A stretch of DNA of 64,000 nucleotides from positions 1 to 64,000 of the forward strand of contig NZ_BAJV01000011.1 in the NCBI RefSeq assembly GCF_000613885.1, read 5' to 3'. This DNA comes from Asaia prunellae JCM 25354 (lineage in GTDB: Bacteria > Pseudomonadota > Alphaproteobacteria > Acetobacterales > Acetobacteraceae). The position numbers and the translations under genes are program-made. Every line of letters begins with the position of its first letter. The stretch's first letter is position 1. The notes beneath the pieces are model-generated. The model did not search any database and was not told where the DNA came from. It saw only the letters and a program-made list of their open reading frames with translations. Positions 1-64,000 of the stretch are shown in pieces.

Positions 1-257
1 GGCATGGGCGTAGGGCAGGGCGCCTTGGCGGCATCGGCGCGTATGGCGGCGGCCAGGCCGCGATTGCGGTAGATATGCGTGAGGAACGCGAGCGGCGAAC
101 AGGTTGCCAGTTCCTGCGGGCTCATGCCGCTCAGGGCATCGAGGCCAGGCGCAAGCGCGGACGGATCGACCACGAGCGGACCGTTCCAGTCCACCTGCTT
201 CCTGTTCCGGCTGCCCTTTTTGCGTCCGGCGCCAGGACGTGCGCCACCGTGAGCCAT
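1..257 (-). CDS. Phage terminase small subunit (partial, cut by window edge)
   Basis: The frame starts at ATG 255-257 after a purine-rich site (GGAAAGGGA) and runs off the left edge. The N-terminus reads MAHGGARPGAGRKKGS, a glycine/arginine-rich opening common in terminase small subunits, which recognise the packaging site on phage DNA. Near the edge the frame reads AKAPCPTPMP, whereas the family usually has AKAALPYAHP. One missing base at about position 21 would restore the usual residues. The HNH gene immediately upstream on the same strand fits the HNH-TerS-TerL packaging order. The function rests on the N-terminal motif and context only. Confidence 0.75.
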   Translation of the reverse strand, partial: MAHGGARPGAGRKKGSRNRKQVDWNGPLVVDPSALAPGLDALSGMSPQELATCSPLAFLTHIYRNRGLAAAIRADAAKAPCPTPM

Positions 258-373
258 TACTGGTCCCTTTCCTTGATAACTTGATTTCCTTGATAGACCG
301 GAAAATCTGCCGCTGAGCCCTGTGCGGTTACGGGGGTAGGGTCCGGCCGGACTTTCGGCCTGCCCCCTCGGGG

Positions 374-699
374 TCAGCGGGTCAGGGTTTCGCGGGTGCG
401 GATGGCCCGGACGCGGGCCGTCTTGCCGCTATGGCAGGAGCCGCAGAGCAGCCGGATATTGCCCGGATCGAGCGGCGCACCGCCGTCTTTGAGTTCATGG
501 ATATGATCGCCGAAGATACGGCAGCCGGTACGGCCACAGACCTCGCAGCGTCGACCACGCTGGGCGAGAAGGCGGGAGATGAGGCCGCGCCATTCAGGGG
601 AGAGGTAGATGGCCTTTGTCTGCTTTGGCAGCGCCGCCGCAATCCCGGTTCTGACGCTGCGAACCGCAGGCGGGATGCATTGCAGTTTGCGGACTGCAT
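374..699 (-). CDS. HNH endonuclease, phage packaging type
   Basis: A small nuclease with CEVCGRTG, then GDHIHELKDGG, then LLCGSCHSGKT: two Cys-X2-Cys zinc knuckles around a central His, as in HNH nucleases next to phage terminases, where they assist packaging. The ATG at 697-699 has a GGAG nine bases upstream, but the nuclease motifs lie in a neighbouring frame that is open upstream to 907. Adding one base just after the ATG (about 697) would give M-x-VRKLQCIPP and about 108 residues, the expected size. A start at GTG 709 in the written frame is the alternative, but its ribosome site is poor. It is transcribed toward the terminase gene. Confidence 0.75.
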
Positions 700-954
700 G
701 GATCGTCACTCCGGAAATCAGGCATAAAAAAAGACGCCTGCCCGTGTGGGTAAACGTCCCGCGACGATGACACTCGAAATACTGCAAAAATGGAACGCAT
801 GGAAGAGAAAAATGAGAAGAGTTATTTCTTATTGTACGCCCTGTATGTGATATCATCACGGATATACCGCGCTGATATAAAATTTCTAACGAGAAATAAT
901 ACAACACAACACATAAGTTATATTATATAATATTTATAAATAATGGAGAATAAA

Positions 955-1422
955 ATGAAATTTAATCACCACATAATATCCAGATGCTTTTACGGTTTTT
1001 CTGGACTGTTCCTAATAGCGTTAGCGGTCCTAATGATTGTCTTTTCATGCTTCGAGCTTGTTAGCTCCTTCCTGGTTTCGTTCGCCGACGCGAAAACGAA
1101 AATACTTAGAGCTATTAGTTTTATAGTGATAGCACTTGCGGTTTTCGATGTGGCTAAATATTTTATTGAAGAGGAGTTTTCAAAGGTTTCCGGTAATCAG
1201 ACCTTAAATGAAGCTCGAGTTAGCCTGATGAAATTTGTGAGTTCTATTTCCATTGCATTGTTTGTTGAAGGGTTGGTTGGCGTATTTGAGGCCTCGGATA
1301 AGGCACCTAGCAGTATTCTATATCCGGCAGTTCTGATTTTGGTAGCTACTGCAGTCGTGCTAACTATGGGAATATATCAGAGAATGAGTGTAAATGCCGA
1401 AAAAGAGAAAGCAAGTCTCTGA
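955..1422 (+). CDS. Four-TM membrane protein of unknown function (moron-like)
   Basis: This 155-residue protein has four hydrophobic segments at about residues 12-37, 46-70, 88-110 and 123-143, and ends in a lysine-rich tail. The motif FDVAKYFIEEE followed by SLMKF and ALFVEGLVGVFEA resembles, from memory, small membrane proteins sometimes named general glycosylation pathway protein; no biochemical role is implied. ATG 955 is preferred over 943 because GGAG (945-948) sits six bases before it. The gene is clearly AT-rich, has its own AT-rich leader (about 840-940), and opposes the flanking phage genes. That is the usual signature of an independently transcribed moron. Confidence 0.6.
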   Translation: MKFNHHIISRCFYGFSGLFLIALAVLMIVFSCFELVSSFLVSFADAKTKILRAISFIVIALAVFDVAKYFIEEEFSKVSGNQTLNEARVSLMKFVSSISIALFVEGLVGVFEASDKAPSSILYPAVLILVATAVVLTMGIYQRMSVNAEKEKASL

Positions 1423-1468
1423 GAGTGTTTGTCAGAAATTCTCGATATGAAATCGGGGTAGTTCCTAC

Positions 1469-1933
1469 TCATCCGCGCCACTTTTCAAGTCCACCCCTTG
1501 GGAGAGGTAGTCTTCGGGCGATTAACGCACAGGCACCATCAAAGCGCGCTTTCGCTGTATGGTTGGATACACCAAGCCGTTTCCCGATCTGTTCCCATTT
1601 CCATCTGTTCTCACCCGAGATCGGATGCCGGATCATGCGCATATGCACGACGGTCTTTTGCTGGCGATCCTCGATCAGCGGTATCCAGCCGAGCACCACG
1701 TCTAACCGGTCGATCTGTTCTGCTGTGGGGCGGGGCAGGAATTCATCGCTTTCACGTTCCCATCCAAGATCCTCCAGATCGCACAGATAGGCGGGCCAGG
1801 TGCTGCGGGCACCGGCTGGGCGCAGGCCGGTGGCGGGGAGGCAGGCGAGGGTGAGGGCGGCTTCGTCCAGCCATTCGCCCACCTGTTCGGGCAGGCTGCG
1901 TTCAGGATCGAAAGTGAGAGGGAGCCGGCTCAT
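1469..1933 (-). CDS. DUF6362-like phage protein with HTH segment
   Basis: A 154-residue protein. Its C-terminal part (W-E-Q-I-G-K-R-L-G-V-S followed by an Arg/Ala-rich helix) reads as a helix-turn-helix similar to sigma-factor region 4. I recognise the overall sequence as the DUF6362 family of alphaproteobacterial prophages; the family has no assigned role that I can state. Its ATG overlaps the stop of the preceding gene by four bases (ATGA), so it is the last gene of the replication operon. The position before the packaging genes would suit a late-gene regulator, but that is inference. Confidence 0.6.
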   Translation of the reverse strand: MSRLPLTFDPERSLPEQVGEWLDEAALTLACLPATGLRPAGARSTWPAYLCDLEDLGWERESDEFLPRPTAEQIDRLDVVLGWIPLIEDRQQKTVVHMRMIRHPISGENRWKWEQIGKRLGVSNHTAKARFDGACALIARRLPLPRGGLEKWRG

Positions 1934-63132: not shown

Positions 63133-63163
63133 AAAAAAGCGGCTCATTAAAGCCGCTTTTTTT
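63133..63163 (+). terminator. Rho-independent terminator after rpmG
   Basis: AAAAAAGCGGCT pairs with AGCCGCTTTTTT around a 6-base loop with a terminal T-run: a strong, probably bidirectional terminator. Confidence 0.92.
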
Positions 63164-63249
63164 ATGTCCGGTTCTGAATGACTTGAATGAGATATGGGTA
63201 TAGAGAGGCCGTTCAGCTGTGAGCGGACCTGGTTCCCGTGAGGCGCCCT

Positions 63250-63579
63250 TCAGTAGAGTTTTTCATGAGGGCCGTAAGGAATGATCGTATCACCACTGCG
63301 CGCAAGATTCAGCATGGCGCGTGAGCGTTCATCAAGCATGTCGGCATCAAGAGCGCGCTCGTTGAGGCTGGCAATACGACGTTTCCAGACAGCCTGTTCT
63401 GCATCAGCGTCTTTTTGTGCCTGCAGAGCCTGATCCATGAGCTTGAGCTGCTGGTGATAGGCTTTGAGGCCATGATCACCCTGAAGGGCGTTCCACCCGA
63501 AATAAGCGGTCAATCCCAGAAAGAGGGCAGGGGGAACCACAGCACGTACGATGCGACGGATGGTACGAACGATTTGCAC
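63250..63579 (-). CDS. ftsB: Septum formation initiator FtsB/DivIC family
   Basis: A 109-residue bitopic division protein linking FtsQ and FtsL. One TM segment (about 14-31, VVPPALFLGLTAYFGWNAL) after a short basic N-terminus, then a periplasmic coiled coil (AYHQQLKLMDQALQAQKDAD) and a C-terminal region with ERSRAMLNLARSGDTIIPYG. Lies directly downstream of eno, the usual alphaproteobacterial order. Confidence 0.88.
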   Translation of the reverse strand: MQIVRTIRRIVRAVVPPALFLGLTAYFGWNALQGDHGLKAYHQQLKLMDQALQAQKDADAEQAVWKRRIASLNERALDADMLDERSRAMLNLARSGDTIIPYGPHEKLY

Positions 63580-63658
63580 AGGATCTCCACGATGTCAGAT
63601 AGCCGGATATCCTGATCCTACCCTCGTAAAAGCATCGCTTACAATCGTGCATTTCAAA

Positions 63659-63682
63659 GAGGGAGCGAAAAAACGCTCCCTC
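63659..63682 (-). terminator. Terminator-like hairpin after eno
   Basis: GAGGGAGCG and CGCTCCCTC form a perfect 9-base stem with a 6-base loop, 10 bases after the eno stop on the minus strand, followed by TTT. It separates eno from ftsB. Confidence 0.8.
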
Positions 63683-63691
63683 TTCGTCAGA

Positions 63692-64000
63692 TCAGGTGCG
63701 CGGCAGAATAGAGCGACCTGCATAACGGGCAGCCGTGGCCAGTTCGTTTTCGATGCGGATAAGTTGATTGTACTTGGCCGTACGATCAGAACGCGACAGC
63801 GAACCGGTTTTGATCTGGCCGCAATTTGTAGCGACGGCGAGATCGGCGATGATTGAATCCTCGGTTTCACCCGAACGATGGCTCATGACGCATTTGTAGC
63901 CTGCGCGATGCGCTGTTTCCATGGCGCGGAGTGTTTCGGTCAGCGTGCCGATCTGGTTGACTTTTACCAGAAGCGCATTGGCTGTGTTGCTCTCGATGCC
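63692..64000 (-). CDS. eno: Enolase, C-terminal part (cut by window edge)
   Basis: 2-phosphoglycerate dehydratase of glycolysis. Only the last 102 residues are inside the window. They include LLVKVNQIGTLTETLRAMET, CVMSHRSGETEDSIIADLAV and CGQIKTGSLSRSDRTAKYNQ, the enolase signature and C-terminus. The frame is open to the right edge. Confidence 0.96.
   Translation of the reverse strand, partial: GIESNTANALLVKVNQIGTLTETLRAMETAHRAGYKCVMSHRSGETEDSIIADLAVATNCGQIKTGSLSRSDRTAKYNQLIRIENELATAARYAGRSILPRT

What the first reader, a model, noticed from the sequence alone, without database searches (positions are those of the whole stretch)
1..64000. About sixteen single-indel frame breaks, including essential genes
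Repairable breaks occur at about 21 (TerS), 697 (HNH), 2736-2739, 3048, 4327-4330 (helicase), 10098, 14808 (valS), 23181, 24428 (ilvD), 27006, 32020, 43862 (mutM end), 46951 (dnaN), 52038, 57476 and 58790 (uvrC). Nearly all are one missing base in a short run, and each repair restores family-typical residues. Essential genes are hit as often as cargo, so a homopolymer-type sequencing or assembly error explains them better than decay or programmed frameshifting.
Basis: partly seen in the sequence, partly recalled or inferred. Interest (0 to 1): 0.75.

Follow-up and report, generated by a model that had tools for sequence, protein, structure and literature searches.

The report
Sequencing-error frame breaks in Asaia draft
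The broken reading frames in this stretch of an acetic acid bacterium's genome are almost certainly base-skipping errors made when it was sequenced, not features of the living cell, so they are ordinary and should only be flagged.

Summary
Of the 16 sites named, 15 are frame breaks when compared with intact relatives; one (43862, end of mutM) is not. The window falls short by one base at 13 sites and by two at about 2760 and 46947 (dnaN).

The window lies in an Asaia draft, probably A. prunellae JCM 25354 (inferred). In 36-40 kb of syntenic core genes, breaks seen with both references number 8 here, 17 in A. astilbis JCM 15831 and 21 in A. platycodi JCM 25414, against 0, 1, 2 and 1 in four control Asaia. 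Essential genes are hit: dnaN and valS here, rpoC and dnaE elsewhere in the genome. rpoB is whole.

Over the three drafts the missing bases lie mostly in runs of 2-3 (35 of 44; control 143 of 359) and are mostly G/C (36 of 44). For this genome alone it is 4 of 8 and 7 of 8. The pooled pattern resembles a known Ion Torrent PGM error class rather than long-homopolymer error; the platform is inferred.

One site, in a phage DnaB-like helicase (4321), is broken at the same column in A. platycodi's prophage. A recurring error is likelier than biology, but this is unsettled.

The parts
   Evidence: 4 of 5 relatives found have one more base; the fifth row is empty there
   Evidence: 3 of 4 relatives have one more base; not visible to the protein alignment
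2753..2766 (-). phage-region frame break, two bases short
   Evidence: L266 95.4% identical over 1614-5960
3060..3068 (-). phage-region frame break, one base short
4318..4326 (-). frame break splitting a DnaB-like phage helicase (N-domain ORF 4237-4749, C-domain ORF 3212-4360); the same break is in the A. platycodi prophage L226
   Evidence: L266 has one 512-aa ORF
10092..10099 (+). frame break in a gene of unknown function before the integrase gene
   Evidence: 2 references; 1 relative
13615..16331 (+). valS, broken at about 14808
22755..23640 (-). unnamed core gene, broken at about 23180
23892..25738 (-). ilvD, broken at about 24428
25915..27863 (+). unnamed core gene, broken at about 27003
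29144..32976 (+). large Hint_2-domain protein, broken at about 32000-32041
43011..43895 (+). mutM: intact; the claimed break at 43862 is not there
46013..47165 (+). dnaN, broken at about 46947 (two bases short)
51682..52970 (+). unnamed core gene downstream of the IMP dehydrogenase gene, broken at about 52038-52044
57363..58342 (+). unnamed core gene, broken at about 57476
58649..60540 (+). uvrC, broken at about 58792

Best explanation
The breaks are errors in the deposited consensus. Bases were dropped, over the three error-rich drafts mostly one G or C out of a run of two or three, and the assembly kept the shorter reading. The genes are whole in the living strain. The pooled pattern matches the strand-asymmetric high-frequency deletions described for Ion Torrent PGM reads. 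Shown here: the excess, its confinement to three drafts, and the essential genes hit. Inferred: the machine, and that the strain itself has whole genes.
For: Breaks seen with both references: G000 8, G001 17, G006 21 per 36-40 kb; four control Asaia 0, 1, 2 and 1. Essential genes: rpoC is in three pieces in G000 only and a 1433-aa frame in the other 8; the main dnaE is split in exactly G000, G001 and G006; dnaN and valS are split in the window. Coding constraint is the same before and after breaks: nonsynonymous in 137 of 815 changed codons before, 227 of 1212 after, 1029 of 4732 in genes not counted as broken. Signature over the three drafts: runs of 2-3 in 35 of 44 against 143 of 359 random single-base omissions, p = 5e-7; G/C 36 of 44 against 234 of 359, p = 0.017. 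PMC3623719 (abstract and passages): strand-asymmetric high-frequency indels of the PGM lie 82% in homopolymers of two to three and are dominated by deletions of C and G. PMC3907737 (passages): three JCM Bacillus type strains were read on an Ion Torrent PGM and assembled with Newbler. The independent contig L266 has none of the three phage-region gaps.
Against: No reads were seen, and nothing I saw states the platform of this assembly. The run-of-2-3 signature rests mainly on the two sister drafts: in G000 alone it is 4 of 8, close to the control's 40%. The same PGM paper reports insertions as more common than deletions overall, whereas 45 of 46 both-reference breaks here lack bases and 1 has an extra one. 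The helicase break at 4321 is shared with the A. platycodi prophage at the same column, which random error would give about 0.01 times by my estimate. Three of 8 breaks lie within 8 codons of a G006 break (expected 0.24, p = 0.0024, a test chosen after seeing the data). Yet in 11 comparisons with nearly the same local sequence no core break recurs. rpoB and, in G001 and G006, rpoC are whole. The rpoC, dnaE and mutL splits were read from profile matches and frame lengths, not from base alignments.
Confidence: 0.92

Rival explanations
1. The strain (and A. astilbis, A. platycodi) is a mismatch-repair mutator whose real indels broke many genes.
For: mutL is split in exactly the three error-rich genomes. 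PMC4596401 (passage) offered a high mutation rate as one of two explanations for the mutated A. astilbis cyo operon.
Against: rpoC, dnaE, dnaN and valS could not all be broken in a viable cell (essentiality is established knowledge). Long runs, where a mutator slips most (recalled), are not enriched (1 of 44 in runs of 4 or more). In-frame stops in this genome's aligned genes are few (3 with one reference, 1 with the other; 0-3 in the clean genomes). The mutL splits may be errors of the same kind. mutS in G000 seems cut by contig ends, so it tells nothing, and mutS is whole in G006.
Confidence: 0.02
2. Gene decay (pseudogenes).
For: Phage and Hint genes are the kind that decay; the prophage helicase is broken in two drafts.
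Against: In the core genes constraint after the break equals that before it, essential genes are hit, and each confirmed site has relatives without the break.
Confidence: 0.02
3. Programmed frameshifting or a truly split gene at one or a few sites, most plausibly the phage DnaB-like helicase.
For: The helicase break is shared by two prophages 91% identical, and the two ORFs overlap.
Against: Orthologues in L266 and in the A. krungthepensis, A. siamensis and G002 prophages are one frame. Both carriers are error-rich drafts, and the A. platycodi helicase has a second break further on.
Confidence: 0.05

Closest known systems
Ion Torrent PGM strand-asymmetric high-frequency indels (Bragg et al. 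2013, PMC3623719; abstract and passages seen)
   Same: single-base deletions, mostly C/G, in runs of two to three; said to yield frame-shifts in assembly; sites shared between runs more than expected at random
   Different: strand asymmetry cannot be tested without reads; the platform of this assembly is inferred; in this genome alone 4 of 8 sites are in runs of two to three
A. astilbis JCM 15831 draft, described as possibly highly erroneous (PMC4596401; passages seen)
   Same: same excess of frame breaks, same collection and genus
   Different: the passages seen do not speak of errors in the A. prunellae draft, and leave a high mutation rate open

Membership tests
Flow-based (Ion Torrent type) deletion errors in an assembly | excess of missing-base frame breaks in one assembly against near relatives | tested here: met
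Flow-based (Ion Torrent type) deletion errors in an assembly | sites in runs of 2-3, mostly C/G | tested here: met
   three drafts pooled: 35 of 44 and 36 of 44; this genome alone 4 of 8 and 7 of 8; 2 of 46 both-reference sites were dropped (one could not be placed, one has an extra base)
Flow-based (Ion Torrent type) deletion errors in an assembly | disagreement between read strands at the sites | not testable with these tools
   no reads available
Flow-based (Ion Torrent type) deletion errors in an assembly | assembly made on that platform | not testable with these tools
   documented only for three other JCM strains
Classic long-homopolymer error | enrichment in long runs | tested here: not met
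   1 of 44 in runs of 4 or more, control 16 of 359
Pseudogenes | relaxed constraint beyond the break | tested here: not met
   eight broken core genes
Programmed frameshifting | break conserved in orthologues | tested here: not met
   none of 46 core sites falls on the same codon in two genomes; the helicase break is shared by 2 prophages but absent from 4 others

The most novel reading that the evidence does not exclude
The phage DnaB-like helicase is truly split, or read by frameshifting, in a small lineage of Asaia prophages, with the N-terminal and helicase domains made from two overlapping frames.
Probability: 0.04. Interest if true: 0.4.

Novelty: not a real feature. Interest (0 to 1): 0.08.

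Why it matters
Anyone using this draft, or the A. astilbis and A. platycodi JCM drafts, should expect broken frames: extrapolating 8 breaks in 36.2 kb over 3.18 Mb gives several hundred in this genome. Gene losses, pseudogene counts and mutator claims from these drafts should be treated with care. Their completeness values (95, 88 and 85, against 99-100 in the other six) are probably lowered by this (inference).

Tried and rejected
A base motif around the 44 placed breaks was sought: of 32, 126 and 358 motifs of 3, 4 and 5 letters, none survives correction for the number tested; GATC, which I had suspected by eye, is not among the eight best shown. Protein-alignment events at 23563, 34069-34213, 35668-35714, 63591 and 63652 were dropped because they rest on one reference, weak alignment or gene ends; 20323 and the stop at 60637 lie at gene starts. 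The next 60 kb of the contig gave 16 events in 48.5 kb with one reference only (11 of -1, 2 of -2, 3 of extra bases), an upper bound; the reverse run gave 7 events in 46.4 kb. The mutS test was uninformative for G000. Of 997 phage records with a match to the helicase C-terminal ORF all were under 60% identical. Paper searches gave nothing on frame breaks or platform of this draft; searches led to PMC4596401, PMC3907737 and PMC3623719, of which only an abstract and passages were seen.

Full report
Where it is. The window is bases 1-64000 of a 132,835-base contig in a draft of 3,179,680 bases in 38 contigs. Its dnaN is 92-97% identical to that of five named Asaia. Eight other Asaia genomes are held. 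NCBI lists eight named species, so by elimination and by its error pattern the window is probably A. prunellae JCM 25354, a draft named in PMC4596401 (passage). This name is an inference.

The observation. I took ORFs of G007 (44) and G002 (39) that match at least two other Asaia and aligned them to each genome with a protein-DNA aligner that allows frame changes (36 and 34 of them align to the window). After dropping alignments under 65% identity or half length, and events within 12 residues of an end, the window has 14 events with G007 and 10 with G002. The other seven confirmed sites were checked with phage-region relatives, DNA alignments, an independent viral contig and Hint homologues. 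The mutM site failed. So 15 of 16 stand. At 10094 and 32020 the size of one base rests on protein alignments and, for 10094, one DNA relative.

Which genomes have them. Breaks seen with both references: 8 in 36.2 kb here, 17 in 39.4 kb in G001, 21 in 39.7 kb in G006; in G003, G004, G005 and G008 together 4 in 152.2 kb (0, 1, 2, 1; the kb are those of the G002 run). Rate ratios are 8.4, 16.4 and 20.1. The two references cannot be scored this way; each shows one break against the other. None of the 46 breaks lies on the same codon in two of the three genomes, although in 11 comparisons the local columns (about 26) differ at 3 or fewer positions, the gap included (three partly covered comparisons not counted).

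Beyond the window. Five genes were looked up in all nine genomes. rpoB is whole in 9 of 9. The main dnaE is split in G000, G001 and G006 only. rpoC is in three pieces in G000 only. mutL is split in G000, G001 and G006 only. mutS is in pieces in G001, seems cut by contig ends in G000 and G004, and is whole in six. A cell with rpoC, dnaE, dnaN and valS all broken would not live; this is established knowledge of these genes. On the next 60 kb of the contig a single-reference count gives 16 events in 48.5 kb, an upper bound.

The kind of error. At 44 of the 46 both-reference sites the gap could be placed: 39 lack one base and 5 lack two. Of the other two, one G001 site could not be placed and one G006 site has an extra base. 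The affected run would be 2 or 3 long in 35, four in 1, and no run in 8; the relatives most often carry G or C at 36. By genome, runs of 2-3 are 4 of 8 in G000, 12 of 16 in G001 and 19 of 20 in G006, and G/C 7, 13 and 16. In a control that omitted random single bases and used the same procedure (400 drawn, 364 alignable, 359 placed), 143 fell in runs of 2-3, 16 in runs of 4 or more, and 234 were G/C. So short runs, and G/C, are favoured in the pool and long runs are not; G000 alone is too small to show it. Bragg et al. (PMC3623719; abstract and passages seen) describe such a class for Ion Torrent PGM: strand-asymmetric high-frequency indels, 82% in runs of two to three, dominated by deletions of C and G, and with more sites in common between runs than expected at random. 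The same paper reports insertions as more common than deletions overall, which does not fit if raw errors passed straight into the consensus. PMC3907737 (passages) shows that three JCM Bacillus type strains were read on that machine. For this draft the platform is inferred.

Not decay, not regulation. Against A. siamensis, changed codons are nonsynonymous in 137 of 815 before the breaks, 227 of 1212 after them and 1029 of 4732 in genes not counted as broken. The frame is under about the same constraint throughout, and both references read these genes in one frame.

The odd site. The phage DnaB-like helicase break at 4321 is also in the A. platycodi prophage (L226) at the same column. The independent contig L266, 95.4% identical to the window over 1614-5960, has a single 512-aa frame. 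The window's other two gaps against L266 are not in L226, and the L226 helicase has a second break of its own. Three of the 8 core breaks here lie within 8 codons of a break in G006 (expected 0.24, p = 0.0024, chosen after seeing the data), against 0 for each of the other two genome pairs. These facts suggest that some errors recur at or near the same places, as Bragg et al. report for this class. A real inherited mutation or split gene at 4321 remains possible.

Verdict. The finding is an artefact of the draft, with little biological interest. PMC4596401 already suspected the A. astilbis draft of being highly erroneous or the strain of a high mutation rate; the essential genes hit favour the first.

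Noticed in passing
window 1-11700: A prophage-like region with a DnaB-like helicase and an integrase gene (10509-11543) next to tRNA-Cys (11599-11672); related stretches lie in several other Asaia, and viral contig L266 is 95% identical over 1614-5960.
   Followed up: partly
window 29144-32976: A large Hint_2-domain protein in a patch with no DNA match at this place in the other Asaia; the genome holds 14 further matches to its C-terminal part.
   Followed up: partly
window 4318-4326 and L226: The helicase frame break is shared by two error-rich drafts at the same column.
   Followed up: yes
genomes G000, G001, G006 (mutL): mutL is split in exactly the three error-rich drafts; probably the same errors, but it could mislead someone into calling them mutators.
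   Followed up: partly
core genes of G000 and G006: Three of 8 breaks here lie within 8 codons of a break in G006, as if error-prone places recur between runs.
   Followed up: partly
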